Source: an uncultured Oscillospiraceae bacterium
Lineage (GTDB): Bacteria; Bacillota; Clostridia; Oscillospirales; Oscillospiraceae
Length of the DNA stretch: 64,000 bases
Assembly: GCA_949841355.1 (NCBI GenBank)
Contig: CATKZP010000010.1
Coordinates: 39,711-103,710 of the forward strand
Direction: 5' to 3'
The notes beneath the pieces are model-generated. The model had not been told where the DNA came from. It made no database searches and saw nothing but the letters and a program-made list of their open reading frames with translations. Position numbers and translations under genes: made by a program. Each line of letters opens with the position of its first letter. Position 1 is the first letter of the stretch. Shown in pieces: positions 5,988 through 58,765 of this stretch.

Positions 5988-6030
5988 AAGCGCGAGGGTA
6001 GGCGCATAGGGGCAGATGGCCCGAAGCGAC
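5988..6030 (+). repeat. Family B intergenic element, 5' part
   Basis: The element starts immediately after the YitT stop codon with AAGCGCGAGGGTAGGCGCAT. It matches the element at 35509-35644 and the minus-strand copy at 45845-45888 over the first 25 nt. Confidence 0.65.
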
Positions 6031-6033
6031 GGC

Positions 6034-6073
6034 AAAAACCCAGCCCCCCGCTATGCGGTTGGCTGGGTTTTGC
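6034..6073 (+). terminator. Hairpin terminator after the YitT gene
   Basis: An 11-bp stem AAAACCCAGCC/GGCTGGGTTTT (6035-6045 with 6061-6071). It occupies the position of the central hairpin of the family B element. Confidence 0.65.
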
Positions 6074-6080
6074 TTGCGAT

Positions 6081-6094
6081 GTTTCACGTGAAAC
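6081..6094. other. parS site 6
   Basis: Exact palindrome GTTTCACGTGAAAC directly after the YitT terminator. Confidence 0.9.
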
Positions 6095-6098
6095 ATTT

Positions 6099-6396
6099 CC
6101 GGCAAGAGCCCCCTGCCGGGGGCGTTCCTTTCTGCTCGTGCAGAAAGGAACCCAAAGACACGCTTAGGGGGCATCCCGCTCCCGCCGCGCTTTGCGCTCC
6201 AGGCGGGCTTCCCCCTAAGAACCCCCCATTACGGGAGAGCCCGATACGAACCGCGGACGCTGACCCTTCCGGCGCGTTCTGCGTTCGGCGCGTTGCTCCC
6301 CTTATTGGCGCTGCCGCTTGTGTCCGGGCGGCGAAACCGCCAGCGGTCCACGACCCGCGCCTTAGCTGGCGGACCGTCCGCTCCGCGGCGCGGAGC
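6099..6396 (+). other. Hairpin-rich non-coding segment between parS 6 and parS 7
   Basis: No plausible gene lies in these 300 nt. The segment holds a chain of perfect or near-perfect hairpins: 6108-6123, a 12-bp stem with a 4-nt loop at 6124-6151, a nested set bounded by TTAGGGGG/CCCCCTAA (6164-6218), and pairings near 6339-6373 and 6381-6395. It could be a structured RNA or a composite repeat. I do not recognise it as a known RNA class. It is flanked exactly by two parS sites. Confidence 0.5.
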
Positions 6397-6405
6397 CGCC
6401 CCAAT

Positions 6406-6419
6406 GTTTCACGTGAAAC
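6406..6419. other. parS site 7
   Basis: Exact palindrome GTTTCACGTGAAAC, 22 nt before the next site. Confidence 0.9.
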
Positions 6420-6441
6420 CACTCCTCACACACCCCAAAAT

Positions 6442-6455
6442 GTTTCACGTGAAAC
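6442..6455. other. parS site 8
   Basis: Exact palindrome GTTTCACGTGAAAC. Sites 7 and 8 are 36 bp apart, centre to centre, in the leader region of noc. Confidence 0.9.
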
Positions 6456-6532
6456 ATTCGGCCCCGCTTCCCCAGGATTCGCCCTCCCAGCTGTGGTATG
6501 CTTTTGGTATATTCACAATGGGAGGCTTTTTT

Positions 6533-7324
6533 ATGTCCCTCTTTCAGAAAACAGCCAAACGGCAGGTGCTGGACCTGCCCGTGAGCGCCATCCGCCCCAA
6601 CCCCCGCCAGCCCCGGCGGGACTTCCCCCAGGAGGAGCTGGCCGAGCTGGCCCGCTCCATCTCCCAGGTGGGGGTGCTTCAGCCCCTCAGCGTCCGGCGC
6701 ACCCAGGAGGGCTGGGAGCTCATCGCCGGGGAGCGCCGCCTGCGGGCCGCCCGGCTGGCGGGGCTGACCCGGGTGCCCTGCCTCAGCGTGGAGGCGGACA
6801 GCGACGCCTCCGCCCTGCTGGCTCTGGTGGAAAACCTCCAGCGCCAGGACCTCACCGTCTGGGAGGAGGCCGCCGCCCTGCGCCAGCTCATCGACCGCCA
6901 CCACCTCTCCCAGGAGGAGGCCGCCGCCCGGGTGGGCAAGAGCCAGTCCGCCGTGGCCAACAAGCTGCGGCTGCTCAAGCTGCCCCAGGACGTGATCGAC
7001 ACCCTGCGCGCCCAGCGCCTCACCGAGCGCCACGCCCGGGCCCTCCTCCGGCTGGACGGTCCCCAGGCCCAGCGCGCCGCCCTGGAGGAAATTGTGAAGC
7101 GGCAGCTCAACGTGGCCCAGAGCGAGGCGTACATCGACCGGCTGATCCAGCAAAAGTCCGCCCCCCGCCGGGCCGCGCCGGTCTACCGCCTGCGAGACGT
7201 GCGGCTGTTCCTCAACACGGTGAAGAAGAGCCTGGCGGTGATGCAGTCCGCCGGGGTGAACGCCCGCTGCGGCCGGGAGGAGACCGACAGCGAAATCACC
7301 CTCACCATCCACATTCCGAAATGA
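6533..7324 (+). CDS. noc: Nucleoid occlusion protein Noc (ParB-family paralogue)
   Basis: A 263-residue CTP-dependent DNA clamp related to ParB. Noc binds its own sites and keeps the division ring off the nucleoid. The CTP-binding segment GERRLRAARLAG (67-78) and the helix-turn-helix SQEEAAARVGKSQSAVANKLRLL (126-148) are clear. Four residues known to set Noc rather than ParB DNA specificity are all Noc-type, at the expected spacing: Q138, K144, K149 and R166 (Bacillus Noc Q158, K164, K169, R186). The start at 6533 follows GGAGG by 7 nt. The N-terminus (MSLFQKTAKR) could be a short membrane-binding helix, as in Noc. A terminator separates it from parA. Confidence 0.9.
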   Translation: MSLFQKTAKRQVLDLPVSAIRPNPRQPRRDFPQEELAELARSISQVGVLQPLSVRRTQEGWELIAGERRLRAARLAGLTRVPCLSVEADSDASALLALVENLQRQDLTVWEEAAALRQLIDRHHLSQEEAAARVGKSQSAVANKLRLLKLPQDVIDTLRAQRLTERHARALLRLDGPQAQRAALEEIVKRQLNVAQSEAYIDRLIQQKSAPRRAAPVYRLRDVRLFLNTVKKSLAVMQSAGVNARCGREETDSEITLTIHIPK

Positions 7325-7332
7325 CCGGCGAT

Positions 7333-7346
7333 GTTTCACGTGAAAC
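7333..7346. other. parS site 9
   Basis: Exact palindrome GTTTCACGTGAAAC, 8 nt after the noc stop codon. Confidence 0.9.
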
Positions 7347-7353
7347 GTTCGCA

Positions 7354-7463
7354 CCCCCCGCAAAGCCGTCCTTCAGGCTTTGTGGGGAAAGGAGGAGCAA
7401 GGGAGCGGGATGAGGGATGGCCGGGACGGGCATCCCGAATCGGAGCGGACTTTGCGACGACGC
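7354..7463 (+). repeat. Family C structured repeat between noc and parA
   Basis: It opens with a 12-bp hairpin (7356-7367 with 7376-7387, one G-T pair), then GGAAAGGAG, an outer stem GCAA/TTGC (7397-7400 with 7452-7455) and an inner stem GGGATG/CATCCC (7414-7419 with 7431-7436). It shares the layout of the copies in tadA and after aspS, and its 3' end runs into parS site 10. Confidence 0.7.
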
Positions 7464-7477
7464 GTTTCACGTGAAAC
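7464..7477. other. parS site 10
   Basis: Exact palindrome GTTTCACGTGAAAC preceded by CGACGC, at the end of a family C repeat. A further half-site (TGTTTCAC) follows at 7501. Confidence 0.9.
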
Positions 7478-7508
7478 GCTCCCAAGGGGGTTCCCCGGAA
7501 TGTTTCAC

Positions 7509-7540
7509 AAAAAGGCCAGGCCCTGCGCCCGGCCTTTTTA
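7509..7540 (+). terminator. Terminator between noc and parA
   Basis: A 9-bp stem AAAAAGGCC/GGCCTTTTT (7509-7517 with 7531-7539) followed by ATTTT. Confidence 0.75.
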
Positions 7541-7553
7541 TTTTGTAAAACGG

Positions 7554-7582
7554 TTGAAATCACGCCCGGAACAGGATATAAT
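7554..7582 (+). promoter_or_regulatory. Sigma-A promoter of the parA-parB operon
   Basis: TTGAAA (7554-7559), a 17-nt spacer and a perfect TATAAT (7577-7582), about 45 nt before the parA start. Confidence 0.8.
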
Positions 7583-7633
7583 GAATTTCAATGCCATGTG
7601 CGCCGCATTTCACGAGAGAGAGGGAGATCCCCC

Positions 7634-8404
7634 ATGGGCAAGACCATCGCCATCGTCAATCAAAAGGGGGGCGTGGGCAAAACCACGTCCTGTGTCAACC
7701 TGGCCGCCGCCCTCACCGCCCAGGGCGCCCGGGTGCTGGTGTGCGACTTCGACCCCCAGGGCAACGCCACCTCCGGCTTCGGGCTGGACAAAAGCCGCTC
7801 CCCCAGCGTCTACGAGGTGGTTTTAGGCGGCGCGCCCATGTCCAAGGCCATCGTCAGCACCAAGTGGGGGGACGTGGTCCCCGCCAACAAGGCCCTGTCC
7901 GGAGCCACGGTGGAGCTTATCGCCCTGGACCGGCGGGAGTTCCGGCTCAAGGACGCCATCCAGGAGGTCAAGGACTGCTACGACGTGATTTTCATTGACT
8001 GCCCCCCCTCCCTGGAGCTGCTCACCCTGGACGGGCTGTGCGCCGCGGACAGCCTGCTGGTCCCCGTCCAGTGCGAATACTACGCCTTGGAGGGGCTGAG
8101 CGACCTTTTGTATACCGTCCGGCTGGCCAAGCAGCGGCTCAATCCGCAGCTGGAGATCGAAGGCGTCCTGCTCACCATGTACGACGGGCGGACCAACCTG
8201 TCCCTCCAGGTGGCCGAGCAGGTGAAGCGCCACTTCCCCGGCAAGGTGTACGCCTCGGTGATCCCCCGCAACGTCCGGCTGTCCGAGGCGCCCAGCCACG
8301 GAGTGCCCGTGTCCGTCTACGATCCCCTGTCCCGGGGGTCGGAGGCCTATGAGGCGCTGGCCAAGGAATTCCTGCGCAAAAACCCCATCGCGGCGCGTAA
8401 TTAG
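7634..8404 (+). CDS. parA: Chromosome partitioning ATPase ParA/Soj
   Basis: A 256-residue deviant Walker-type ATPase that binds DNA as an ATP dimer and works with ParB to segregate origins and regulate DnaA. The deviant Walker A motif KGGVGKTT lies at residues 11-18, Walker A' at VLVCDFDPQGNAT and Walker B at VIFIDCPPSL. Length fits Soj (about 255). The ATG at 7634 follows AGGGAG by 7 nt; the open frame begins further upstream without a ribosome binding site. The gene has its own perfect promoter and is followed by parB after 24 nt. Confidence 0.96.
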   Translation: MGKTIAIVNQKGGVGKTTSCVNLAAALTAQGARVLVCDFDPQGNATSGFGLDKSRSPSVYEVVLGGAPMSKAIVSTKWGDVVPANKALSGATVELIALDRREFRLKDAIQEVKDCYDVIFIDCPPSLELLTLDGLCAADSLLVPVQCEYYALEGLSDLLYTVRLAKQRLNPQLEIEGVLLTMYDGRTNLSLQVAEQVKRHFPGKVYASVIPRNVRLSEAPSHGVPVSVYDPLSRGSEAYEALAKEFLRKNPIAARN

Positions 8405-8428
8405 TTTTAGAGAGGAGACACACCTGAA

Positions 8429-9328
8429 ATGGCTAAAGCCAAAGGCTTGGGGCGGGGCCTGGACGCCCTGATGGGCGATTCCGCCACCCTGCAAAACCAG
8501 GAGGAGTCCGGCTCGGTGACGCTGCCCATTTCCCAGGTGGAGCCGGGGCTCAACCAGCCCCGAAAGCGGTTCGACGAGGCCGCGCTGGCCGACCTGGCCG
8601 CCTCCATCCAGGAGCACGGCATCATTCAGCCCCTCACCGTCCGGCGGCTGGGCACGGGCTACTACCAGATCATCGCCGGAGAGCGCCGCTGGCGGGCCGC
8701 CAAGCTGGCCGGCCGCCGGGAGGTCCCCGTGGTCGTCATCGAGGCGGACGACCGCAAGGTGATGGAGCTGGGCCTCATCGAAAACCTCCAGCGGGAAAAC
8801 CTGAACCCGGTGGAGGAGGCGGAGGGCTATCTGGCCCTGCTCACCGACTACGGCCTCACCCAGGACGAGCTGGCCCACCGCATGGGCAAGTCCCGCCCCG
8901 CCATCTCCAACGCCCTGCGGCTCACCGCCCTGCCCCCCTGCGTGCGGGAGATGATGATTGAGGGCACGCTGTCCGCCGGACACGGCCGGGCGGTGCTGAT
9001 GGTGGAGGGCGAGCAGACCCAGACCGCTTTCGCCCAGAAAATCGTGGAGGAGGGCTGGAGCGTCCGGCAGGCGGAGGCCAAGGCCCGGAACTTCGTGCTC
9101 CCCTCCCAGTGGGACCTGCCCCCCGAAAACACCCCTGACCCCCACGCCATCTACACCAAGGCGGTGGAGCAGAGCCTGTCCCAGCGGCTGGGGCGAAAGG
9201 TCACCATCAAAAACGGGGCCAAAAAGGGCAAGCTGGAGCTGGAATTCTACGACGTGGACGACCTGAACGACCTGTTGGACCTGCTGGAACAGCTGCGCCC
9301 GGCGGCTGAAAAGGAGGCCGAGACATGA
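8429..9328 (+). CDS. parB: Chromosome partitioning protein ParB/Spo0J
   Basis: A 299-residue CTP-dependent clamp that loads at parS and recruits SMC. The N-terminal MAKAKGLGRGLDALM ParA-stimulating segment, the CTP motif GERRWRAAKLAG (85-96) and the helix-turn-helix (TQDELAHRMGKSRPAISNALRL) are present. The four specificity positions read R156, A162, A167 and G184, which is ParB-type (R, T/A, A, G) and unlike the Noc paralogue upstream, so binding to the many parS sites around it is expected. AGAGGAGA precedes the start. The next gene overlaps its stop codon. Confidence 0.96.
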   Translation: MAKAKGLGRGLDALMGDSATLQNQEESGSVTLPISQVEPGLNQPRKRFDEAALADLAASIQEHGIIQPLTVRRLGTGYYQIIAGERRWRAAKLAGRREVPVVVIEADDRKVMELGLIENLQRENLNPVEEAEGYLALLTDYGLTQDELAHRMGKSRPAISNALRLTALPPCVREMMIEGTLSAGHGRAVLMVEGEQTQTAFAQKIVEEGWSVRQAEAKARNFVLPSQWDLPPENTPDPHAIYTKAVEQSLSQRLGRKVTIKNGAKKGKLELEFYDVDDLNDLLDLLEQLRPAAEKEAET

Positions 9329-9966
9329 GCGAAAAGGAACACATTATCCCCGGCGAGGCCCCGAATGTTTCACGTGAAACATCCCAGCCCCGTGAAACCA
9401 ACGCCCAGGAGACGCCGGGGAAAAACAAGCGCTCCTCCTTCTACGTCTATCTTGTGGTGCTGTTCGGCGCGGCGTTTCTGATGCTGCTGCTGGCCTACTT
9501 CGTCCAGCGGCGCAACAACGAGACCGCCCAGAGCGACCTGCGCTCCTCGTTCTCCGCCTCCCGGCAGGAGCTGATGGAGGAGATTGAGGGGCTGGAGGAG
9601 GAAAAGCAGGGGCTGCTGGCCGAAAAAGAGGGGCTCCAGGCCCAGCTCAGCGACGCACAGGCAAACCTGGACGGAGCGAACGCCCTCTATGAGGACCTCC
9701 TGGACGGCTACGACAAATATGTGGGATATACCTCCATTTTGCAGACGCTGTACGCCAGCGAGGTCAAGCTGGAGGCGCGGGACTTCGACGGCGCGGCCGC
9801 AACGCTGACCGATATGGAATACCAGTACTTTGTGGACACCATAGGAGACTACGATGCGGAGATGGAGCACTACAACCCGGAGGGGTTGTTCCTGCGTCCC
9901 CGCTTCGACGCCCTGGTGGAGGAACTCACCCGGCGCGGTGCGCTGGACGAGAGCTGGGCCGGTTAG
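9325..9966 (+). CDS. Single-pass membrane protein with coiled coil, co-translated with parB
   Basis: The ATG overlaps the parB stop (ATGA), so translation is coupled to ParB. The 213-residue product has a soluble N-terminus, one membrane helix at residues 39-60, a long coiled coil (about 66-110, rich in Glu, Leu and Gln) and an outer C-terminal domain. parS site 11 lies inside the coding sequence and is translated as N-V-S-R-E-T (residues 14-19). I do not recognise the family. A link between nucleoid, membrane and division is an attractive inference from context, but nothing in the sequence proves it. Confidence 0.85.
   Translation: MSEKEHIIPGEAPNVSRETSQPRETNAQETPGKNKRSSFYVYLVVLFGAAFLMLLLAYFVQRRNNETAQSDLRSSFSASRQELMEEIEGLEEEKQGLLAEKEGLQAQLSDAQANLDGANALYEDLLDGYDKYVGYTSILQTLYASEVKLEARDFDGAAATLTDMEYQYFVDTIGDYDAEMEHYNPEGLFLRPRFDALVEELTRRGALDESWAG
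9367..9380. other. parS site 11, inside a coding sequence
   Basis: Exact palindrome GTTTCACGTGAAAC within the gene downstream of parB, read as part of codons 14-19. Confidence 0.9.
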
Positions 9967-9968
9967 CC

Positions 9969-9982
9969 GTTTCACGTGAAAC
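9969..9982. other. parS site 12
   Basis: Exact palindrome GTTTCACGTGAAAC followed by GCGTCGG, 2 nt after a stop codon and 43 nt before serS. Confidence 0.9.
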
Positions 9983-10025
9983 GCGTCGGGACACAGCGCA
10001 ACATCTACAGGAAAAAGGTGATTTT

Positions 10026-11330
10026 ATGTTAGACATCAAATTTGTCCGGGACAACCCGGAGATTGTCAAGGAAAACATCAAAAAGAAGTTCCAGGACGAA
10101 AAGCTCCCCCTGGTGGATGAGGTCATCGAGCTGGACCGCCGCAACCGGGACGCCATGACCGAGGCCAACAACCTGCGCTCCGAGCGCAACAAGCTGTCCA
10201 AGCAGGTGGGGATGCTCATGGGCCAGGCCAAAAAGGACCCGTCCAAGCTGGAGGAGGCCGAGGCCGCCAAGGCTCAGGTCAAGGCCAACGCCGACCGTCT
10301 GGCCCAGCTGGAACAGCAGGAAACCCAGCTGGCCGCGGAGATCCGCAGGATTATGCTCCAGATCCCCAACATCATCCACCCCTCCGTGCCCGTCGGCAGG
10401 GACGACAGCGAAAATGTGGAGGTGGAGAAGTTCGGTGAGCCTCTGATCCCGGAGTTCGAGGTGCCCTACCACACCGACATCATGGAGCGGTTCGACGGCG
10501 TGGACATGGACGCCGCGGGCCGCGTGTCCGGCGCCGGGTTCTACTACCTCATGGGGGACATCGCCCGGCTCCACGAGGCGGTGCTGGCCTACGCCCGGGA
10601 CTTCATGATCGGCAAGGGCTTCACCTTCTGCGTGCCCCCCTTCATGATCCACGGCAATGTGGTGGAGGGCGTCATGTCCCAGACCGATATGGACGCCATG
10701 ATGTATAAAATCGAGGGCGAGGACCTATATTTGATCGGGACCTCCGAGCACTCCATGATCGGCAAGTTCATCGACCAGATCATCCCCGAGGAAAAGCTCC
10801 CCCAGACCCTCACCTCCTACTCCCCCTGCTTCCGCAAGGAGAAGGGCTCCCACGGCATCGAGGAGCGGGGCGTCTACCGCATCCACCAGTTCGAAAAGCA
10901 GGAGATGATCGTGGTGTGCAGGCCCGAGGACTCCATGGACTGGTACGAAAAGATGTGGCGGTACTCCGTGGAGCTGTTCCGGTCCATGGACATCCCCGTG
11001 CGCCAGCTGGAGTGCTGCTCCGGCGACCTGGCCGACTTGAAGGTCAAGTCCTGCGACATCGAGGCCTGGTCCCCCCGGCAGAAGAAATACTTCGAGGTGT
11101 GCTCCTGCTCCAACCTGGGGGACGCCCAGGCCCGCCGCCTGAAAATGCGGGTGAAGGGCGAGGGCGGCGCCTCCTACCTGCCCCACACCCTCAACAACAC
11201 CGTGGCCGCGCCCCCCCGTATGCTCATCGCCCTGCTGGAAAACAACCTCCAGGCCGACGGCTCCGTGAAGGTTCCCCAGGTGCTCTGGCCCTACATGGGC
11301 GGGACCCAGGTGCTGACGCCCAAGCACTGA
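10026..11330 (+). CDS. serS: Serine--tRNA ligase
   Basis: A 434-residue class II aminoacyl-tRNA synthetase that charges tRNA-Ser. Residues 1-105 form the helical hairpin arm that grips the long variable arm of tRNA-Ser. The catalytic domain shows motif 2 (FRKEKGSHGIEERGVYRIHQF) and motif 3 near the C-terminus (VLWPYMGGTQVL). Length matches bacterial SerRS (about 425-430). The ATG follows AAGGTG. No T-box is visible in the 59-nt leader, which instead holds parS site 12. A weak hairpin and parS site 13 follow the gene. Confidence 0.96.
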   Translation: MLDIKFVRDNPEIVKENIKKKFQDEKLPLVDEVIELDRRNRDAMTEANNLRSERNKLSKQVGMLMGQAKKDPSKLEEAEAAKAQVKANADRLAQLEQQETQLAAEIRRIMLQIPNIIHPSVPVGRDDSENVEVEKFGEPLIPEFEVPYHTDIMERFDGVDMDAAGRVSGAGFYYLMGDIARLHEAVLAYARDFMIGKGFTFCVPPFMIHGNVVEGVMSQTDMDAMMYKIEGEDLYLIGTSEHSMIGKFIDQIIPEEKLPQTLTSYSPCFRKEKGSHGIEERGVYRIHQFEKQEMIVVCRPEDSMDWYEKMWRYSVELFRSMDIPVRQLECCSGDLADLKVKSCDIEAWSPRQKKYFEVCSCSNLGDAQARRLKMRVKGEGGASYLPHTLNNTVAAPPRMLIALLENNLQADGSVKVPQVLWPYMGGTQVLTPKH

Positions 11331-11332
11331 GG

Positions 11333-11346
11333 GTTTCACGTGAAAC
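11333..11346. other. parS site 13
   Basis: Exact palindrome GTTTCACGTGAAAC followed by GCGTCGG, 2 nt after the serS stop codon. Confidence 0.9.
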
Positions 11347-11356
11347 GCGTCGGGGC

Positions 11357-11385
11357 GGGCTTCGTTTGTTCACGCAAGCCCCCCT
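11357..11385 (+). terminator. Weak hairpin after serS
   Basis: GGGCTT pairs with AAGCCC (11357-11362 with 11376-11381) plus CGT/ACG inside, with one bulge. Only a short T run follows, so termination is uncertain. Confidence 0.4.
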
Positions 11386-11430
11386 TTGGCAAGCCTATGC
11401 CCGTCCATTAAATTTTAAGGAGAATTCGCC

Positions 11431-12186: not shown

Positions 12187-12222
12187 AAAGCGTTGAGCCG
12201 TCGCGAGCAGCGCGGAGAAGCT
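12187..12222 (+). repeat. Family A intergenic element, 5' fragment
   Basis: The segment directly after the mscL stop carries GTTGAGCCGTCGCGAGCAG and then CGCGGA, the 5' module of family A. The 3' module is missing. Confidence 0.65.
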
Positions 12223-12594: not shown

Positions 12595-12597
12595 GCC

Positions 12598-22732: not shown

Positions 22733-22768
22733 GTCACGCTGCGCCTGTTCACGACGGCTCCGCGCTTC
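22733..22768 (-). repeat. Family A minimal element between gyrB and gyrA
   Basis: Read on the minus strand the element begins directly after the gyrB TAA with GAAGCGCGGAGCCGTCG and ends with GCAGCGTGAC just before the gyrA ribosome binding site. It contains the outer modules only, without the central hairpin. Confidence 0.7.
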
Positions 22769-26827: not shown

Positions 26828-26856
26828 GTCACGCTACCCAGACGGTTCAGCGCTTC
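26828..26856 (-). repeat. Family A minimal element between dnaN and rlbA
   Basis: On the minus strand it begins directly after the dnaN TAA with GAAGCGCTGAACCGTC and ends GTAGCGTGAC. Only the outer modules are present. Confidence 0.65.
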
Positions 26857-28200: not shown

Positions 28201-28204
28201 TGAG

Positions 28205-28331
28205 TGCGAAGCCGTCGTGAGCAGCGCGGATGGACTGGAGCGAGGACAAAAATCCAAGGCCTACGCAGCAGGACTGAATTTTGTCCGAGTCGGAGGGAAG
28301 CCGCGCGTCGCGAACAGGCGAAGCATGATAA
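28205..28331 (+). repeat. Family A full-length element in the dnaN-dnaA gap
   Basis: Full element read on the plus strand, opposite to dnaA and dnaN. The central stem GGACAAAA/TTTTGTCC (28244-28251 with 28279-28286) and an outer stem GCGCGG/CCGCGC (28224-28229 with 28301-28306) pair perfectly. The flanks carry GAGCAG and GAACAGGCGAAGC. Confidence 0.75.
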
Positions 28332-36027: not shown

Positions 36028-36372
36028 ATGACCACCGTCACCTTCCACAGCGGGTCCGGCCGCATCGACGGCTTCGTGGTGGAGGGCCATAGCGGGTACG
36101 CAGAAGCGGGGGCGGACATTGTGTGCGCCGCCGTCTCCGCCGCGGTGGGCCTGAGCGAATGCACCATCAACGAAGTGCTGGGCCTTGGGGCCCCGGTGAA
36201 GGCCAGCGAAAAGGACGCCCGCATCTCCCTCAAGCTCCCCGGCGGGCTGAGCGAGGCTAACGAACACACCTGCCAGAACCTGCTGGCCGGGCTGCTGGTC
36301 TACCTCCAGGCCATGGGGGAGGAATACCCCGATAATCTCATCGTCCTCATGGACGATGATGATGAAGCGTGA
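36028..36372 (+). CDS. prp: Ribosomal-processing cysteine protease Prp
   Basis: A 114-residue protease that removes the N-terminal extension of L27. The catalytic pair His21 (GHSGYAEAGAD) and Cys33 (DIVCAAVS) is intact. The ATG at 36028 follows GAGGAGG; a TTG one codon upstream is less likely. The substrate is encoded next door with a matching extension. The last codons and stop (GAAGCGTGA) form the first bases of a family A element. Confidence 0.94.
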   Translation: MTTVTFHSGSGRIDGFVVEGHSGYAEAGADIVCAAVSAAVGLSECTINEVLGLGAPVKASEKDARISLKLPGGLSEANEHTCQNLLAGLLVYLQAMGEEYPDNLIVLMDDDDEA

Positions 36373-36403
36373 GCTTAGGCGCGGCCAAGGCGAGCGCGAC
36401 AAC
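36364..36403 (+). repeat. Family A short element overlapping the prp stop codon
   Basis: Begins GAAGCGTGAGC, in which TGA is the prp stop, and ends GAGCGCGACAAC before the rpmA ribosome binding site. Central modules are reduced. Confidence 0.6.
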
Positions 36404-45809: not shown

Positions 45810-45844
45810 CTTGAAATCAGTCCTTTTTCTCTCTGTGTGCGGCG

Positions 45845-45888
45845 CGGAGCTGCCGTAGGATTGGCCTATGCGCCGATCCTCACGCTTC
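45845..45888 (-). repeat. Family B element overlapping the hfq stop codon
   Basis: On the minus strand it begins GAAGCGTGAGGATCGGCGCAT, in which TGA is the hfq stop codon. The first 25 nt match the elements at 5988 and 35509; the rest has diverged. Confidence 0.6.
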
Positions 45889-49069: not shown

Positions 49070-50512
49070 TTGAACCGAACCACCCCCGTCGTCCCCGCTG
49101 AGGACATCCAGCGGCAAAGAGAATACTGCGCTGAGCTGCGCGCCCTCAACGCCCAACGCCCCGCCCCCCCGCTGGCCTATGTGGACACCTACGGCTGCCA
49201 GCAGAACGAGGCCGACTCCGAGCTGCTGCGGGGTATGCTGTGCGAGATGGGCTACGAGATCACGGACAGCGAGAAGGGCGCGGACGTCATCGTCATCAAC
49301 ACCTGCGCCATCCGGGAGCACGCCGAGCAGCGGGTGTTCGGCAACGTGGGCGCCCTGGTCCACGGCAAGCGGAAAAACCCGGAGCAGATCATCTGCCTGT
49401 GCGGCTGCATGGCCCAGGAGGCCCATGTGGCCGACCGCCTGCGCCAGTCCTACCGCCATGTGGACCTGGTGTTCGGCCCCCAGCAGCTGTGGCGGTTCCC
49501 GGAATTTCTGCGCCGGGTGCTGCTGCGCCGCGGCCGGGTGTTTGAGACCGCCCCCGACGACGGCGCCATCGCGGAGGGCCTGCCGGTGCGCCGGTCGGGC
49601 AGGCTGAAGGCCTGGGTGTCCATCATGTACGGCTGCAATAATTTCTGCTCCTACTGCATCGTGCCCTACACCCGGGGGCGGGAGCGCAGCCGGGAGCCGG
49701 ACGTCATCCTGCGGGAGATCCAGGAGCTGGCGGACCAGGGGTACAAGGACATCACCCTGCTGGGCCAGAACGTGAACTCCTACGGGAAGGACCTGGAGGG
49801 CGGCTGGGACTTCCCCCGCCTGTTGGAGGCGGCCGCGGCCGTCCCCGGGGAGTTTTTGCTGCGTTTCATGACCTCCCACCCCAAGGACGCCACGGAAAAG
49901 CTCTTTGACGTGATGGCGCGGTGCGAAAAAGCGGCCCCGGTGATCCACCTGCCCTTCCAGTCGGGGAACACCCGGGTGCTCACGGCCATGAACCGACGCT
50001 ACACCCGGGAGCAGTACCTGGCCAAGGTGGAGGCCCTGCGGGAGCGCATCCCGGACGTGGTGCTCACCAGCGACGTGATCGTGGGCTTCCCCGGGGAGAC
50101 CACCGCCGAGTTTGAGGACACCCTCTCCCTCATCGAGCAGGTGCGCTTCGACGCGCTGTTCACCTTTATCTACTCCCCCCGGAAGGGCACCCCCGCGGCG
50201 GAGATGGACGACCCCATGGCGAAGGATGAGAAGTCCGCCAACTTTGACCGGCTGGTGGAGACCCAGAACCGCATTTCCCTGGAAAAGCACCGGGCCTATA
50301 CCGGCACGGTCCAGCGCTGCCTCATCGACGGGCTGGGGGAGGACCCCCGGAACAACCTCACCGCCCGGACGGCGGGGGGCCGGCTGGTCCACCTCAGCGG
50401 AGACCCGGCCCTGGTGGGGCAGTTCGCGGACATCCGCATCACCGGCTGCTCCACCTGGGCGCTGTTTGGTGAACTGAGCGCTGAGCCGTCGCGAGCAGCC
50501 GTTAGGCCGTAA
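49070..50512 (+). CDS. miaB: tRNA-2-methylthio-N6-dimethylallyladenosine synthase
   Basis: A 480-residue radical SAM methylthiotransferase. The N-terminal cluster uses Cys in TYGCQQNEADS, NTCAIREHAEQ and CGCMAQE; the radical SAM motif is MYGCNNFCSYCIVPY; a TRAM domain closes the protein. I chose the TTG at 49070, 8 nt after GGGAGG, because the upstream frame crosses the DnaA-box cluster. The last 11 residues and the stop codon are encoded by a family A repeat. Confidence 0.94.
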   Translation: MNRTTPVVPAEDIQRQREYCAELRALNAQRPAPPLAYVDTYGCQQNEADSELLRGMLCEMGYEITDSEKGADVIVINTCAIREHAEQRVFGNVGALVHGKRKNPEQIICLCGCMAQEAHVADRLRQSYRHVDLVFGPQQLWRFPEFLRRVLLRRGRVFETAPDDGAIAEGLPVRRSGRLKAWVSIMYGCNNFCSYCIVPYTRGRERSREPDVILREIQELADQGYKDITLLGQNVNSYGKDLEGGWDFPRLLEAAAAVPGEFLLRFMTSHPKDATEKLFDVMARCEKAAPVIHLPFQSGNTRVLTAMNRRYTREQYLAKVEALRERIPDVVLTSDVIVGFPGETTAEFEDTLSLIEQVRFDALFTFIYSPRKGTPAAEMDDPMAKDEKSANFDRLVETQNRISLEKHRAYTGTVQRCLIDGLGEDPRNNLTARTAGGRLVHLSGDPALVGQFADIRITGCSTWALFGELSAEPSRAAVRP

Positions 50513-50660
50513 AGCGGCCATAGGCCTAAGCCGCCCAAGGGGCGGCCCACGGCGCGGATGGACTGAAGCGAGGGGAAAAGCCCAGCCGCCGCAAAGCGGC
50601 AGGCGGGTTTTGCCCGAGTCGAAAGGAAGCCGCGCGTGGCGAGCAGGCGAAGCGTGACAA
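50474..50660 (+). repeat. Family A composite element after miaB, first unit
   Basis: Full element with an extra module inserted after GAGCAG. The central stem pairs GGG/CCC, AAAA/TTTT and CCC/GGG (50572-50583 with 50605-50615, one mismatch and one bulge). The inserted module has its own hairpin CCGCCC/GGGCGG near 50531-50545. It supplies the end of the miaB coding sequence. Confidence 0.75.
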
Positions 50661-50756
50661 TGAACTGAGCGCTGAGCCGTCGCGCGGAGCCGTTAGGCGG
50701 CAAAGCCGCCCTAGGCCTAAGCCGCGCGATGCGCGGCCCACGGCAAACGCGACAAC
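50661..50756 (+). repeat. Family A composite element after miaB, second unit
   Basis: Repeats the first 24 nt of the preceding unit exactly (50470-50493 and 50661-50684) and then carries the extra module with a changed but still pairing hairpin CCGCGC/GCGCGG, ending CGCGACAACC before the mreD ribosome binding site. Confidence 0.7.
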
Positions 50757-53527: not shown

Positions 53528-53533
53528 CCCCGG

Positions 53534-53575
53534 AAAAGGCCGGAGACGGAATATTATTCCGTCCCCGGCCTTTTT
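53534..53575 (+). terminator. Terminator of mreD-mrdA
   Basis: An 18-bp stem with one mismatch (53534-53552 with 53556-53574) and loop ATT, followed by T residues. Confidence 0.9.
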
Positions 53576-53679
53576 GGGTGGGCGGGACATAATTGTTTTG
53601 GGCAAATCAGAGAAAATAAACCGGGTACTTCCGGGCCAGGATGCCCCCGCGTCCTGCAATCCAGTTTTTGGGAAACCAT

Positions 53680-53720
53680 TGATCCACAAGGCTTCCACAA
53701 CTTCCACACAAACTTCCACA
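53680..53720 (+). promoter_or_regulatory. DnaA-box cluster downstream of mrdA
   Basis: Four 9-mers in one orientation: TGATCCACA (53680-53688), GCTTCCACA (53691-53699), ACTTCCACA (53700-53708) and ACTTCCACA (53712-53720), spaced 9-12 bp. The surrounding 330 nt between the two terminators hold no gene. Confidence 0.65.
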
Positions 53721-53857
53721 GCACTGTGCAAGGATGACGGACGGCATTCCTGCATAACCGGGTTTACATAAAGGGATGTCAAGCCCAATTCCTCCGTGAA
53801 TTCCACGATTTTAAAAATTCCGGTATATCGCTCCAATCTGAGGCGGGAGGGCAAAAA

Positions 53858-53888
53858 AAGCGCCCCGGCTTTTCACCGGGGCGCTTGT
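53858..53888 (-). terminator. Terminator of the transketolase operon
   Basis: On the minus strand AAGCGCCCCGG pairs with CCGGGGCGCTT around a TGAAAAG loop, followed by a TTTTTT run. Confidence 0.9.
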
Positions 53889-53905
53889 CTCGAACCGAAC
53901 GGGGC

Positions 53906-54850
53906 TCAGCTTCTGGCGAACTGCTCCGCCACGCTGGCGATGTTGGCCGCGCACAGCCCGAACTGCTCCAGCAGGGCCGCCGCCGGGCCGGAGTGGCCGA
54001 ACACGTCGTTGACGCCGATGCGCTTGACGGGGGTGGGGCGCTTTTCGCCCAGCAGGGAGCACACCGCCTCCCCCAGCCCGCCGATGACGGAGTGCTCCTC
54101 GCAGGTGATAATCTTCCCGCACTCCGCCGCCGCTTGGAGCACCAGCTCCTCGTCCAGCGGCTTGATGGTGGCCATGTTGATGATCCGGGCGGACAGGCCC
54201 CGCTGGGCCAGCAGCTCTCCGGCCTCCACCGCCTCGGCCACCAGCAGGCCGTTGGCGATGATGGCGATGTCGCCGCCGTCCCGCATCACCTCGCCCCTGC
54301 CGATCTCAAAGGCGAAGCTGTCCTCGTCGTGGAACACGGGCACCGGGGAGCGGCCAAAGCGCATATACACGGGGCCCTGGTGCTCATAGGCGGCTTTGAC
54401 CATGGCCTTGGCCTCCACCGCGTCGGCGGGGGACATGACCACCATGCCGGGGATGGCGCGCATGAGGGCGAAGTCCTCCAGGCACTGGTGGGAGGCGCCG
54501 TCCTCCCCCACGGAGATGCCGCCGTGGGAGGCGCCGATCTTCACGTTGAGCCCCGTGTAGCCGATGGAGTTGCGCACCTGCTCATAGGCCCGCCCGGCGG
54601 CGAACATGGCGAAGGAGGAGGCGAAGGCCACCATGCCCATGGCGGCGGCCCCGGCGGCCACGGCCATCATGTTCCCCTCCGCGATGCCGCAGTTGAAGTG
54701 GCGGTCCGGGAACGCCTTGCCGAACATGGCGGTCTGGGTGGAGCCGGCCAGGTCCGCGTCGAACACCACCACGTTGTCGTGGGCGGCCCCCAGCTCCCGC
54801 AGGGCCTCGCCGTACCCCTGCCGGGTGGCAATCTTTTTCACGCTTTCCAT
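53906..54850 (-). CDS. Transketolase, C-terminal subunit
   Basis: A 314-residue subunit holding the pyrimidine-binding and C-terminal domains of transketolase. The TPP-activating Glu lies in FNCGIAEGNMM, and KIGASHGGISVGEDGASHQ is the family landmark. It begins immediately after the stop codon of the N-terminal subunit (TAA-ATG). Together they exchange two-carbon units in the non-oxidative pentose phosphate pathway. Confidence 0.94.
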   Translation of the reverse strand: MESVKKIATRQGYGEALRELGAAHDNVVVFDADLAGSTQTAMFGKAFPDRHFNCGIAEGNMMAVAAGAAAMGMVAFASSFAMFAAGRAYEQVRNSIGYTGLNVKIGASHGGISVGEDGASHQCLEDFALMRAIPGMVVMSPADAVEAKAMVKAAYEHQGPVYMRFGRSPVPVFHDEDSFAFEIGRGEVMRDGGDIAIIANGLLVAEAVEAGELLAQRGLSARIINMATIKPLDEELVLQAAAECGKIITCEEHSVIGGLGEAVCSLLGEKRPTPVKRIGVNDVFGHSGPAAALLEQFGLCAANIASVAEQFARS

Positions 54851-55696
54851 TTATACCGCCTCCAATCCGGCCAGAGCCGCGCGCAGCTCGCTCAGCGCGG
54901 TCTCGGCCTGCTCGTCGTTGGGGGCCTTGCCGTGCCAGCCCGCCTGGTTTTCCATAAAGCTGACCCCTTTGCCCTTGGTGGTTTTCATCACGATGGCGAA
55001 GGGGCGGCCCTTCACCCGCCTGGCCTGGGCGAAGGCGGCCTCGAGCTGTTCGAAGTCGTGGCCGTCCACCTCCGCCGTCTCCCAGCCGAAGGCGCGCAGC
55101 TTGTCAGCGATGGGGTAGGGGCTCATCACCTGGTCCACGGGCCCGTCGATCTGGAGGCCGTTGTTGTCGATGACGGCGCACAGGTTGTCCAGCTTGTAGT
55201 GGTGGGCGAACATCATGGCCTCCCACACCTGGCCCTCCTGGATTTCGCCGTCCCCCAGCAGGGTGTAGACCCGGCAGGGATTGTTTTGCAGCTTGGCGGA
55301 CAGGGCCATGCCGCAGGCGGCGGACACCCCCTGCCCCAAGGAGCCGGTGGACATGTCCACCCCGGGGATGGACTTCATGTCCGGGTGGCCCTGGAGGTAG
55401 CTGCCGATATGGCGCAGGGTTTTGAGGTCCTCCCAGGGGAAGAAGCCCCGCAGCGCCAGCGCGGCGTACAGCCCCGGCGCGCAGTGGCCCTTGGAGAGGA
55501 CGAACCGGTCCCGGCCCCCCTTCTTGGGGTCCTTAGGGTCCACGTTCAGCTCCTTGAAGTAGAGGTAGGCGAACAGGTCGGCGGAGGACAGGCTTCCGCC
55601 GGGGTGGCCCGCTTTGGCGGCGTGGGTGGACTGGATGATCCCCATGCGCACCTTGCAGGCGTTGGCCATCAGCGTCTTTTTCTCGTTGGCAGTCAT
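54851..55696 (-). CDS. Transketolase, N-terminal subunit
   Basis: A 281-residue TPP-binding subunit. The diphosphate-binding motif GDGEIQEGQVWEAMMFAHHYKLDN and TGSLGQGVSAACG are intact, with SKGHCAPGLYAALA near the start. Split transketolases are common in anaerobic Bacillota. The gene is the first of the pair and starts at ATG 55696. Confidence 0.94.
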   Translation of the reverse strand: MTANEKKTLMANACKVRMGIIQSTHAAKAGHPGGSLSSADLFAYLYFKELNVDPKDPKKGGRDRFVLSKGHCAPGLYAALALRGFFPWEDLKTLRHIGSYLQGHPDMKSIPGVDMSTGSLGQGVSAACGMALSAKLQNNPCRVYTLLGDGEIQEGQVWEAMMFAHHYKLDNLCAVIDNNGLQIDGPVDQVMSPYPIADKLRAFGWETAEVDGHDFEQLEAAFAQARRVKGRPFAIVMKTTKGKGVSFMENQAGWHGKAPNDEQAETALSELRAALAGLEAV

Positions 55697-55767
55697 ATGA
55701 TTCCTTCTTTCCTCCGGCAGGGCCGCGGGAACTCAGGCGGTCTGCGGTAATGTATGATAAGAGCGGC

Positions 55768-56853
55768 CTACGGCGTGTCGATGCTGTCCCGGCAGAAGAA
55801 GCGGTAGCTGGTCTGGCTGTGGAACTCCTCCCCCGCCCGCAGCACGCAGGAGGGGAAGTCCGGCCGGTTGGGGGAGTCGGGGAAGAACTGGGTCTCCAGG
55901 CAGAAGCCGCAGCGGTCGCCGTATGCCGCGCCGCCCTTCCCGGCGGGACAGCCCCCCAGGAAATTGCCCGCGTAGAACTGGATGCCCGGCATATCGGTGT
56001 GGACGGACATGGCGATGCCGGTGTTCTTGGAGAAAGCCATGGCGGCGGGAAGGCCGCTGTTCGGGCGCAGGACCCAGTTGTGGTCGTACCCCCCGGCCAG
56101 AGCAAGCTGGGGGAAGTCCTCCCCGATGCGGGCGCCGATGGGCTGGGCGCGGCGCAGGTCCATGGGAGTGCCGTCCACGGGGAGGACGGGCATCTCGCAC
56201 CCGTCCCCGTCCGCGGTCCTGACGGGGATAAGCCCCGGCCCGATGGGGGTGTAGTGGTCGGAGAACAGCCGGATGTGCTGGTCCTCCACCCTGCCGCTGG
56301 CGTGGCCGGAGAGGTTGAAATAGCTGTGGTTGGTGGGGTTGAACACGGTGTCCTGGTCGCACCGCGCCCAGTAGAGGATGCGCAGGGTATCCTGGTACAG
56401 CTGGTAGGTGACCCGCACCTCCAGATTGCCGGGGTAGCCCTCCTCCCCGTCGGGGCTGGCGAGGGAGAGGGTGACGGCGTCCTGTTTCACCTCTTCCGCC
56501 GTCCACACCCGCTTGTCGAAGCCCACGGCCCCGCCGTGGAGGGAGTTGGGCCCGTCGTTGGCACACAGAACGTACTCCTTATCGTGCAGGGTGAACCGCG
56601 CCCCGGCGATGCGGTTGGCGTACCGGCCCACAATGGCGCCCATATACTTGTCCTGGGCCAGGTAGTCCTCCAGGGTGTCAAAGCCCAAAACCACGTCCAC
56701 CGGCCTGCCGTCCCGGTCGGGGACCTCCAGCGAGCGCACCGCGCCGCCGTAGGTGAGCACCTGGCAGCGCAGCCAGCCGTTGTCCAGGGTGATCTGGTCC
56801 ACCTGCGCGCCGCCGTCGGGCATGCGGCCGAAGGCGGCTGTGTTGTTTTCCAT
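55768..56853 (-). CDS. galM: Aldose 1-epimerase
   Basis: A 361-residue mutarotase that interconverts alpha and beta anomers of galactose or glucose. Catalytic His residues lie in GGAVGFDKRVW upstream context and NPTNHSYFNLSGH, and the catalytic Glu in FCLETQFFPDSPNRPDFPS. The start at 56853 follows GGAGG; the longer open frame runs into the divergent gene. It is separated from the transketolase genes by 71 nt and has its own promoter. Confidence 0.94.
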   Translation of the reverse strand: MENNTAAFGRMPDGGAQVDQITLDNGWLRCQVLTYGGAVRSLEVPDRDGRPVDVVLGFDTLEDYLAQDKYMGAIVGRYANRIAGARFTLHDKEYVLCANDGPNSLHGGAVGFDKRVWTAEEVKQDAVTLSLASPDGEEGYPGNLEVRVTYQLYQDTLRILYWARCDQDTVFNPTNHSYFNLSGHASGRVEDQHIRLFSDHYTPIGPGLIPVRTADGDGCEMPVLPVDGTPMDLRRAQPIGARIGEDFPQLALAGGYDHNWVLRPNSGLPAAMAFSKNTGIAMSVHTDMPGIQFYAGNFLGGCPAGKGGAAYGDRCGFCLETQFFPDSPNRPDFPSCVLRAGEEFHSQTSYRFFCRDSIDTP

Positions 56854-56929
56854 AGATTCCTCCTGTGTCTGCCGGCATGTGTGAGGGGAGGGGCCGGCCC
56901 CGCTCCCGGCGTCAAATACATTCCAGTCC

Positions 56930-56958
56930 ATTTTACCATACCCGGCGGGGGAAAACAA
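56930..56958 (-). promoter_or_regulatory. Promoter of galM
   Basis: On the minus strand TTGTTT (56958-56953), a 17-nt spacer and TAAAAT (56935-56930). Confidence 0.55.
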
Positions 56959-57026
56959 CCGCAAACCGGTTTTTTCCGGCCTTTTTGTCGAATTGGTGAC
57001 ACTGACCAAAAATTTCCCGCGCCCTG

Positions 57027-57055
57027 TTGGCATCCATCCATTTTTTTGATATAAT
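57027..57055 (+). promoter_or_regulatory. Promoter of the DUF1538-PII genes
   Basis: TTGGCA (57027-57032), a 17-nt spacer and TATAAT (57050-57055), 26 nt before the gene. Confidence 0.75.
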
Positions 57056-57081
57056 GCCCTATACATCATTACAATGGCGGG

Positions 57082-58641
57082 ATGTTTGCCATAGAGAGGA
57101 CGGTGGAGCGGTTGGGCGGTTCCCTCCCGAAATTGAAGGAAAAGCTGCTGGAGGCGCTCAAGGCGGTGTTGCCCATTGTGGGCATCGTGCTGGCGCTGTG
57201 CTTCAGCATGGCCCCCATCTCCCCCAGCATTCTGCTGTGCTTTCTGCTGGGGGCGGCCATGATCGTGGCGGGCATGATGTTTTTCACCCTGGGCGCGGAG
57301 GCCAGCATGACCCCCATGGGAGAGCGGGTAGGCTCCGCCGTCACCCGCAGCCGCAGGCTGTGGGTCATCATTGTCATGGGCTTTTTGCTGGGCTTTCTCA
57401 TCACCATCTCCGAGCCGGATCTCCAGGTGCTGGCCGGCCAGGTGCCCGCCGTGCCCAACCTGACCCTGATCCTGTCGGTGGCGGCGGGGGTGGGCGTGTT
57501 TCTGGTGGCGGCGCTGCTGCGCATGCTGCTGGGCATCGCCCTGGCCCCCATGCTGGTGTTTTTCTACGGGGCGGTGTTCGTCCTGGCCTTTTTCGTCCCG
57601 CCGGACTTTCTGGCGGTGGCCTTCGACTCCGGCGGCGTCACCACGGGGCCTATGACGGTGCCCTTTATCATGGCCCTGGGCGTGGGCATCTGCGCCATCC
57701 GAAACGACCGCCACGCTGCGGACGACAGCTTCGGCCTGGTGGCGCTGTGCTCCATCGGGCCCATCCTGGCGGTGCTCATCCTGGGCATGATCTTCCGCCC
57801 GGAGGACGGGGCGTACACGCCCCCCGTCCTGCCGGAGATCGCGGACTCGGTGGAGCTGTGGGCGCTGTTCCGGGACGGGCTGCCCACCTACATGGGGGAG
57901 ATCGCCCTGTCCCTGCTGCCCATCACCGCCCTGTTCGGGATATTCCAGCTGGCGGCGCTGAAGCTGTCCCCCCGGACGCTGAAGAAGATCGGCGTGGGGC
58001 TTGTCTACACCTACGCGGGGCTGGTGCTCTTTCTCACGGGGGCCAACGTGGGCTTTATGCCCGCAGGCAATTACCTGGGCCAGGTGATGGCGGGGCGGGA
58101 CTTCCGCTGGATCATCGTGCCGGTGGGCATGGTCATCGGCTACTTCATCGTCAAGGCGGAGCCCGCGGTCTACGTCCTCAACCGGCAGGTGGAGGAGATC
58201 ACCGACGGGGCCATCCCCTCCTCGGCCATGGGGGCGGCGCTGTCGCTGGGCGTGGCGGCGTCCATCGGCCTGGCCATGGTGCGGGTGCTCACGGGGATCT
58301 CCATTTTGTGGTTTCTCATACCGGGCTACGCCATCGCCATTATCCTGTCCTTTTTCGTGCCCAAGATATTCACCGCCATCGCCTTTGACTCCGGCGGCGT
58401 GGCCTCGGGACCCATGACCGCGGCCTTTCTGCTGCCCTTCGCCCAGGGGGCGTGCGCGGCGGTGGGCGGGAACATCGTCACCGACGCCTTCGGGGTGGTG
58501 GCCATGGTGGCCATGACGCCCCTCATCGCCATCCAGGTGCTGGGCGTGGTCTACCGCGTCCGGCAGGGCGCGGGGGCCAAGGCTGTCCCGGCGGCCCCGT
58601 CCTTCGAGGATCTGGACGACGACGCGATTATTGAGCTATAA
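57082..58641 (+). CDS. DUF1538 membrane protein
   Basis: A 519-residue membrane protein made of two similar halves, each with about six helices and the signature AFDSGGV(T/A)(T/S)GPMT (around residues 180 and 440). DUF1538 proteins are predicted transporters that are often encoded with a PII-like protein, as here. The duplicated signature loops suggest a pseudo-symmetric transport path. Substrate unknown. A full family A element lies between its stop codon and the next gene. Confidence 0.88.
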   Translation: MFAIERTVERLGGSLPKLKEKLLEALKAVLPIVGIVLALCFSMAPISPSILLCFLLGAAMIVAGMMFFTLGAEASMTPMGERVGSAVTRSRRLWVIIVMGFLLGFLITISEPDLQVLAGQVPAVPNLTLILSVAAGVGVFLVAALLRMLLGIALAPMLVFFYGAVFVLAFFVPPDFLAVAFDSGGVTTGPMTVPFIMALGVGICAIRNDRHAADDSFGLVALCSIGPILAVLILGMIFRPEDGAYTPPVLPEIADSVELWALFRDGLPTYMGEIALSLLPITALFGIFQLAALKLSPRTLKKIGVGLVYTYAGLVLFLTGANVGFMPAGNYLGQVMAGRDFRWIIVPVGMVIGYFIVKAEPAVYVLNRQVEEITDGAIPSSAMGAALSLGVAASIGLAMVRVLTGISILWFLIPGYAIAIILSFFVPKIFTAIAFDSGGVASGPMTAAFLLPFAQGACAAVGGNIVTDAFGVVAMVAMTPLIAIQVLGVVYRVRQGAGAKAVPAAPSFEDLDDDAIIEL

Positions 58642-58765
58642 GCGCTGAGCCGTCGCGAGCAGCGCGGGTGGACCGAAGCGAGGGCGAGCGCCGGGGCGCA
58701 CAGCGCCCCGGCGACCAGCCCGAGACGGAGGGAAGCCGCGCGTTGCGAGCAGGCGAAGCGTGACG
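58640..58765 (+). repeat. Family A full-length element between the DUF1538 and PII-like genes
   Basis: It starts at the DUF1538 stop codon and ends GCGAAGCGTGACGGCAAAC. The central arms GGGC/GCCC (58682-58685 with 58718-58721) and an 11-bp hairpin CGCCGGGGCGC/GCGCCCCGGCG (58689-58699 with 58703-58713) replace the AT-rich arms of other copies while keeping the pairing. Confidence 0.8.

What the first reader, a model, noticed from the sequence alone, without database searches (positions are those of the whole stretch)
5988..58765. Modular intergenic element (families A and B) that abuts stop codons and shows covarying hairpins
At least eleven copies occur: 5988, 12187, 22733, 26828, 28205, 35509, 36364, 45845, 50474, 50661 and 58640. 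Most begin right at a stop codon (after gyrB, dnaN, mscL, DUF1538, YitT; overlapping it in hfq and prp) with GAAGCGYKGAG and end in GCGTGAC(AAC) shortly before the next ribosome binding site. The central hairpin arms are GGACAAAA/TTTTGTCC, GGG-AAAA-CCC/GGG-TTTT-CCC, or GGGC plus an 11-bp GC stem: different sequences, same pairing. Such compensatory change is strong evidence of selection on RNA or cruciform structure. Short copies equal the long ones minus the part between two GCGAGCAG repeats, which suggests nested insertion or deletion. I know of no described element with this layout.
Basis: partly seen in the sequence, partly recalled or inferred. Interest (0 to 1): 0.88.

Follow-up and report, generated by a model that had tools for sequence, protein, structure and literature searches.

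The report
Mobile RNA rods at stop codons
Scattered through this bacterium and its relatives is a new family of short repeated sequences that fold into jointed RNA rods, mostly sit right after a gene's stop codon in the gene's own direction, and have spread by a machinery that is not yet known.

Summary
The eleven places belong to a large dispersed family: 57 covariance-model hits in the 2.76 Mb genome, 51-83 in five congeners, 0 in two others. It is in 42 of 300 sampled genomes of the family (18 of 106 genera); no sampled genome outside that family matched. Record titles point to Oscillospiraceae. Three interchangeable 'feet' (A, B, C) sit on one central module. Pairing is kept by compensatory change. 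G-U exceeds A-C 304 to 28, so the sense strand is what folds. In codirectional gaps 88 of 97 copies are sense; of 58 scorable copies 27 start 0-6 nt after the stop codon, against 3.6 expected. Orthologous loci show insertion without target duplication at two clean sites, and the same site holding different interiors. Rfam has no match. The own genome shows no Y1 or IS630-type transposase. Best reading: a new, BOX/REP-like but distinct, non-autonomous modular repeat whose transcript is a compact rod, sometimes domesticated (rplU leader). What moves it is open; insertion at RNA level is not excluded.

The parts
5988..6078 (+). B-foot copy directly after the TAG stop of the YitT-family gene 5067-5987; 3' end lost
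12188..12215 (+). A-foot 5'-arm fragment directly after the MscL stop codon
22734..22767 (-). short A copy between gyrB stop and gyrA start; relatives L060, L069 and L071 read TATTRAG^CAGGAGG without it
26829..26855 (-). short copy directly after the dnaN stop; the same site is filled by other interiors in L062, L063, L065 and empty in others
28202..28329 (+). full A rod, antisense between dnaN and dnaA
35510..35640 (+). full B rod in the 5' leader of rplU, conserved at the same place in two congeners
36365..36400 (+). short copy overlapping the Prp stop codon, before rpmA
45840..45887 (-). B-foot copy overlapping the Hfq stop codon; altered 3' end
50475..50658 (+). full A rod with an extra two-hairpin module, at the end of the Radical SAM/TRAM gene
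50668..50753 (+). second, shorter copy 9 nt downstream with the same two-hairpin module
58640..58764 (+). full A rod beginning inside the DUF1538 stop codon; the same site holds C rods or an A-footed copy in congeners and is empty in others

Best explanation
This is a new family of non-autonomous, mobile, modular small interspersed repeats, found so far in one bacterial family. Each full copy (about 125-133 nt) is transcribed as part of the host mRNA and folds into one long rod: a basal helix, one of three exchangeable feet, a constant central module with symmetric purine (G-A) internal loops, and a freely variable apical hairpin. Copies sit preferentially at or just after a stop codon, in the sense direction, in an AG^CA-like context and, at the two clean sites, without target duplication. 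Because the rod closes on itself, the upstream stop codon and the downstream ribosome-binding site stay close in space, so operons, leaders and even a reading frame tolerate it. Arms exchange, nest and shorten; some copies have become useful leader parts (rplU). SHOWN: structure, covariation, orientation, position, empty and filled sites, nesting, distribution. INFERRED: transcription, neutrality by folding, domestication. UNKNOWN: the enzyme that moves it, and whether the CA belongs to the target or the element.
For: Copy number and patchiness. Distribution. Covariation with three different feet. Sense-strand wobble bias. 88 sense vs 9 antisense in codirectional gaps, start at the stop codon. 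Closing base pairs covary into the flank, 17 of 18. Empty sites: 34 nt at window 22733 vs L060, and 135 nt (138 against L064) at L054:3539 vs 11 loci, no duplication at either. Same site, different interior. Nested and tandem copies. rplU copy 96.9% and 93.9% identical in two congeners while the 5' flank is 77% and 66% and rplU itself 92.0% in the one where it could be scored. Two virus contigs, no plasmid and no phage record match.
Against: No mobilising enzyme or autonomous copy was found. Not every junction is clean: for example at 28203, L088:2493, L197, L199 and L205 extra bases, a few to about 45 nt, differ between filled and empty loci. At L054:3539 the base pair right of the junction is CA in only 5 of the 11 empty loci. 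No transcript data. Stop-codon anchoring and sense bias could come from selection alone. The A alignment is biased: 78 of its 84 rows contain the exact 21-nt pattern used for fetching.
Confidence: 0.66

Rival explanations
1. Functional cis-acting mRNA element rather than a selfish repeat: the rod after the stop codon tunes termination, mRNA stability or translation of the next gene, and is spread and kept for that use.
For: Position and orientation; rplU copy at 96.9% where rplU is 92.0%; orthologous copies at 96-98% where flanks are 75-94% in L133/L139, L091/L095/L104 and L149/L153; REPs within 15 nt of a stop codon are reported to stall ribosomes (passages of PMC12306157).
Against: Copy number swings from 0 to 83 inside one genus; 21 of 27 orthologous pairs scored are at or below 0.80 identity or differ in type (recounted; the list is incomplete and some rows repeat one locus); neighbouring genes are unrelated in function.
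Confidence: 0.15
2. RNA-level mobility: the folded transcript is inserted, by reverse transcription or reverse splicing, into other messages near the stop codon (a bacterial SINE-like element).
For: Sense bias 88:9; no target duplication at two clean sites; stop-codon anchoring; reverse transcriptase (RVT_1) matches in all six copy-rich genomes counted.
Against: RVT_1 was not found in G009, G013 and G025, for which one search lists copies, nor in G040, which has at least a short copy (L064); it is present in copy-free G019; the matches are of several lengths and none is linked to the element; genomes are incomplete.
Confidence: 0.12
3. REP-like relics moved by a Y1 (RAYT-type) transposase acting on single-stranded hairpin DNA, now lost.
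For: No target duplication, hairpin, a short sequence preference at the ends.
Against: No Y1_Tnp match in the own genome, with 5 of 14 control genomes ringing, nor in G022, G024, G036, G038, G039; orientation follows genes.
Confidence: 0.1
4. MITE of an IS630-type element with TA duplication.
For: A minority of copies read TA-rod-TA.
Against: TA, AT and AC/GT ends all follow the base-pairing rule (17 of 18); no duplication at the two clean sites; no DDE_3 match in the own genome, G022, G024, G036 or G038, though G039 has two.
Confidence: 0.05
5. DNA-level element (cruciform or protein-binding palindrome).
For: Long inverted repeats; the duplex could extrude.
Against: G-U to A-C asymmetry 304:28, or 76:28 without the three fixed wobbles, and strong sense bias.
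Confidence: 0.04

Closest known systems
BOX-type composite repeats of Streptococcus pneumoniae and S. suis (PMC3049150: passages, and sections 5 and 6)
   Same: Small interspersed, modular (end modules with exchangeable inner modules), folded as RNA with compatible changes, 125 elements in one genome, one forms a composite structure with T-box riboswitches, proposed to be parasitic
   Different: BOX has terminal inverted repeats and target duplications and is over-represented between convergent genes; ours has no duplication at two clean sites, is not enriched between convergent genes (10 of 119 placed outside genes) and is sense and stop-anchored. Sequences were not compared
REP/BIME elements and RAYTs (PMC3733652 and PMC12306157: passages and abstract starts)
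   Same: Short, abundant, downstream of genes, GT pairing in stems, some within 15 nt of stop codons
   Different: REPs are 20-40 bp with a GTAG or CGTC tag; ours is a rod of about 130 nt with no Y1 transposase match in its genome
Rickettsia palindromic elements (recalled; only a search listing seen)
   Same: Structured repeat that can sit in frame inside a protein gene (valS, L133/L139)
   Different: Mostly outside genes here; no sequence comparison made

Membership tests
REP/RAYT | Cognate Y1 tyrosine transposase in the genome | tested here: not met
   0 matches in the own genome; 16 of 42 congeners have one, but not the five copy-rich ones
REP/RAYT | 20-40 bp palindrome with a GTAG or CGTC end tag | tested here: not met
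   rods of about 125-133 nt; the flank logo shows only AG before and CAACA after
BOX-type composite repeat | End modules with exchangeable or repeated inner modules, RNA stem-loop | tested here: met
   feet A/B/C, variable apical hairpins, extra modules
BOX-type composite repeat | Terminal inverted repeats and target-site duplication | tested here: not met
   two clean empty sites without duplication; other sites were not clean enough to tell
BOX-type composite repeat | Sequence relation to boxA/boxB/boxC | not tested
   no BOX sequences were compared
IS630-type MITE | TA target duplication and related transposase | tested here: not met
Known Rfam RNA family | Match at gathering score | tested here: not met
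   0 matches in the window and in 24 distinct loci (L139 was given twice); only chance-level matches at E up to 5 for two copies
Intrinsic terminator | GC hairpin followed by a T run | tested here: not met
   3' flank is CAACA, T at most 0.30 in any of 12 positions; the terminator scan tool was not run
Rickettsia palindromic element | In-frame insertion inside protein genes | tested here: inconclusive
   5 of 125 placed copies lie in sense inside called genes; the valS reading frame runs through the rod and matches Pfam

The most novel reading that the evidence does not exclude
A bacterial SINE-like element: a structured RNA that spreads by inserting its own transcript, in sense, next to stop codons of other messages in an AG^CA-like context, without target duplication, using a reverse transcriptase or other RNA-acting machinery supplied in trans.
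Probability: 0.13. Interest if true: 0.92.

Novelty: new variant of a known kind. Interest (0 to 1): 0.64.

Why it matters
It adds a large repeat family, undescribed as far as my searches show, to bacteria that are common in animal guts. Its anatomy (sense, stop-anchored, self-closing rod with exchangeable feet) gives a testable rule for how mobile sequence can be made harmless inside operons. It also poses a sharp question: what enzyme inserts a rod at a stop codon in the direction of transcription. The same-site copies with different interiors and the conserved rplU copy offer natural experiments on the step from selfish repeat to regulatory RNA.

Tried and rejected
Rfam at gathering score and, for two copies, at E up to 5: nothing meaningful. 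Y1_Tnp, IS630-type DDE_3 and RVT_1 as movers: none is found in every copy-bearing genome; RVT_1 is the only one of the three found in all six copy-rich genomes. An autonomous long copy with the same ends was looked for only by reading partial hits; none was seen, but no systematic search was made. attC-like integron sites were considered and dropped without a formal test. Replication-linked orientation was not tested statistically. Papers: searches listed no paper on this family, as far as titles and abstract starts show; of PMC8040213 I saw passages only and its supplementary tables were not available, so an unnamed entry there cannot be excluded; of PMC10969869 a term search found none of my six terms.

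Dropped rows: four actinobacterial loci (L072, L086, L147, L148) were kept as negatives and gave 0 hits; titles of the last 33 of 113 stretches were not shown to me. 21 of 146 merged copies were set aside as too close to a locus end; 30 of 88 codirectional copies with a negative distance were left out of the uniform-gap test. The B and C alignments used 12 and 15 of the near-full hits; A/C mosaics, duplicates of one locus and copies with large inner inserts were left out.

Full report
Check of the observation. All eleven coordinates carry the repeat. A nucleotide search with the 58640 copy gives 48 matches in the 2.76 Mb genome (E up to 10, so the weakest may be chance). A covariance model built from 84 A-type copies gives 57 hits at E up to 0.01 in the own genome, 66, 79, 79, 83 and 51 in congeners G022, G024, G036, G038 and G039, and none in G019 and G031 (150 candidates scored per genome). 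Four chance matches of the fetching pattern in Streptomyces and Nocardioides gave no profile hit. Gene names used here for the window were checked with Pfam.

Anatomy. A full copy is one continuous rod. From outside inwards: a basal helix AAGCGC/GCGTGA whose first pair is a near-fixed G-U; a foot; a constant central module GGACC-GRA-GC-GA-GGNC / GNCC-GA-GUC-GGA-GGG with symmetric purine internal loops; and a variable apical hairpin. Three feet occur. A is GCCGTCGYGARCAGCGCGG with CCGCGCGTCGCGARCAGGC; B is RGATAGNNGCNN with its complement and AATCY; C is GAAGCGGNCAG with CTGNCCGCTTC. Mosaics with an A foot on one side and a C foot on the other exist (L141:5607-5731, L078:4615-4746), as do further hairpin modules inside loops.

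Covariation. A: 84 sequences, 34 pairs, 97.5% of cells paired against 89.2 (sd 0.3) in shuffles and 26-49% in slid controls; 20 pairs with changes on both sides. B: 12 sequences, 30 pairs, 98.9% against 86.6, 15 pairs with double changes. C: 15 sequences, 36 pairs, 98.0% against 84.2, 22 pairs. For B one of the five measures, further pair types, is not above its shuffles (349 of 500). The A set is biased: 78 of its 84 rows contain the exact 21-nt pattern used for fetching, so columns 9-29 could hardly vary. None of the B and C rows contains that pattern, and they covary at least as strongly. Structures were derived from the same sequences, so slid controls favour them somewhat.

Which strand. 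In A, 304 cells are G-U and 28 A-C; leaving out the three positions where G-U is the norm, 76 against 28. Structure in the sense strand is what is kept, which points to RNA (or sense single-stranded DNA) rather than a cruciform.

Position and direction. With a home-made gene caller, 146 merged A-profile copies gave: both neighbours in the copy's direction 88, both against it 9, divergent 12, convergent 10, inside a called gene 6 (5 sense), and 21 near a locus end not placed. In codirectional gaps the 88:9 split has p = 2e-17. 54 of the 88 start between -20 and +6 of the upstream stop. Among the 58 with non-negative distances on both sides, 27 start within 6 nt of the stop against 3.6 expected from uniform placement, and none ends within 6 nt of the next start. 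Copies are related by descent, and most loci were fetched through the A arm, so these p values overstate independence. Only 9 of the 88 are from the own genome's stretches. The share in codirectional gaps is not significantly above background (p = 0.07) and convergent gaps are not enriched (p = 0.18).

Ends. In 82 copies beginning AAG, the flank is A (0.71) G (0.84) before, and C (0.85) A (0.91) A (0.67) C (0.67) A (0.68) after, with no signal at +6. Closing pairs extend into the flank: of 95 copies ending in GA, 69 pair -1 with +1, 18 pair the first base with +1, and 8 do neither; 17 of the 18 also pair -1 with +2 (chance 6 in 16, p = 7e-7).

Insertion. At window 22733 the relative L060 reads TATTGAG^CAGGAGGAC where the window has 34 nt inserted; L069 and L071 also read TATTAAG^CAGGAGG. 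At L054:3539 eleven loci lack exactly 135 nt (138 in the alignment to L064) that end in GTGA; the gene's end changes from IYDPVPPKKIRK-stop to IYDPVPPKRKR-stop, with the new stop supplied by the rod. In five of the eleven loci the bases right of the junction are CA, in six AA. No duplication is seen at either site. Of 144 sites tested, 26 site-by-relative rows over ten sites passed my junction filter (one, L080:4907, is a different insertion); several of the others show extra bases on one or both sides. The DUF1538 site (58640) holds an A rod in the window, an A-footed copy with a foreign interior in G038 (L210), C rods in G036 (L197) and G009 (L205), and is empty in the six loci listed (at most six rows were printed per site). 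The site of 26829 is filled in the window, L062, L063 and L065 with different interiors but a shared right flank, and empty in others. Thus interiors turn over at fixed sites. Nested insertion is visible in L063 at the gyrB site. Head-to-tail arrays, often with a 7-nt spacer, occur in several genomes.

Short copies. The two arms of foot A share the direct repeat CGTCGYGARCAG, 10 of 12 identical; copy 22734-22767 is what deletion between them would leave.

Distribution. 42 of 300 sampled genomes of the family, 18 of 106 genera, have hits (at most 11 candidates scored per genome, stricter filters). In a class sample 2 of 291, both of the window's genus; in an order sample 9 of 245, all of the window's family. 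Distant relatives of the element below this sensitivity would be missed. Two virus contigs match the 5' pattern and one of them the 3' pattern; no match in plasmids, phages or E. coli.

What moves it. Y1_Tnp: 0 in the own genome, 16 of 42 congeners, none of the five copy-rich ones named above. IS630-type DDE_3: 8 of 42, not in the own genome, G022, G024, G036 or G038, but in G039. RVT_1: 25 of 42, including all six copy-rich genomes, but also copy-free G019, and not found in G009, G013 and G025, for which one search lists copies. Genomes are incomplete, so absences are weak. No mover is identified.

Use by the host. The B rod in the rplU leader is 127/131 and 123/131 identical in G038 and G035, while the 77 nt before it are 76.6% and 66.2% identical. 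The rplU gene is 92.0% in G038 (third codon positions 82%); for G035 only 86 of 312 positions could be aligned and I do not use that figure. The G035 changes include a compensated apical helix. G039 (L061) carries a C rod there and L159 none. Three other sets of orthologous copies are 96-98% identical with flanks at 75-94%, but 21 of the 27 pairs scored are at or below 80% (the rplU pairs fell outside that filter, and L061/L136 and L065/L166 are one locus each). One conserved set is in frame inside valS (L133, L139; Pfam). In L104 the rod sits antisense in the leader of a threonyl-tRNA-synthetase-type gene (Pfam tRNA_SAD) that I read, from memory of the T-box consensus, as a T-box; Rfam did not call one there. 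Such cases could be selection, gene conversion or repeated insertion; I cannot separate them.

Comparison. The nearest described kind is the BOX composite repeat: modular, RNA-folding, proposed parasitic, one fused to T-boxes (PMC3049150). BOX has inverted ends, makes target duplications and favours convergent gaps; this family, as far as tested, does not. REPs share the downstream position and GT pairing (PMC3733652), and those within 15 nt of a stop are reported to stall ribosomes (PMC12306157), but the tag, size and RAYT tests fail. I therefore file it as a new variant of a known kind: a small interspersed repeat with a layout of its own.

Noticed in passing
window 1124-11333 and 62885: Fourteen exact GTTTCACGTGAAAC palindromes, which I recall as parS-like, thirteen of them in the first 11.4 kb around ParA- and ParB-family genes 7598-8404 and 8429-9328.
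   Followed up: partly
window 50499-50553 and 50690-50744: A separate two-hairpin module beginning CCGTTAGGC sits inside two rods; similar modules in own-genome loci L007, L012, L015 and in L070.
   Followed up: partly
window 6100-6230; L053, L061, L071: Another intergenic repeat with a hairpin like CTTTCTGCNCGNGCAGAAAG and a CTTAGGGGG segment, seen by eye in several congeners.
   Followed up: no
L133:1289-1410 and L139:800-921: A-type rod in frame inside a valyl-tRNA synthetase gene, 98% identical in two genomes whose flanks are 75% identical.
   Followed up: partly
L104:727-849, L091, L095: Antisense rod apparently embedded at a hairpin tip of a threonyl-tRNA synthetase leader that looks like a T-box (recalled consensus); not called by Rfam.
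   Followed up: partly
L146, L094, L079; G022:C18, G024:C17: Head-to-tail arrays with a recurrent 7-nt spacer (AACATAG, AACATCG, AGCGCAG).
   Followed up: partly
L218:7410-7529: One full rod, after a TAG stop, in a contig filed as viral; it could be host DNA. The other virus contig, L217, was not examined.
   Followed up: no
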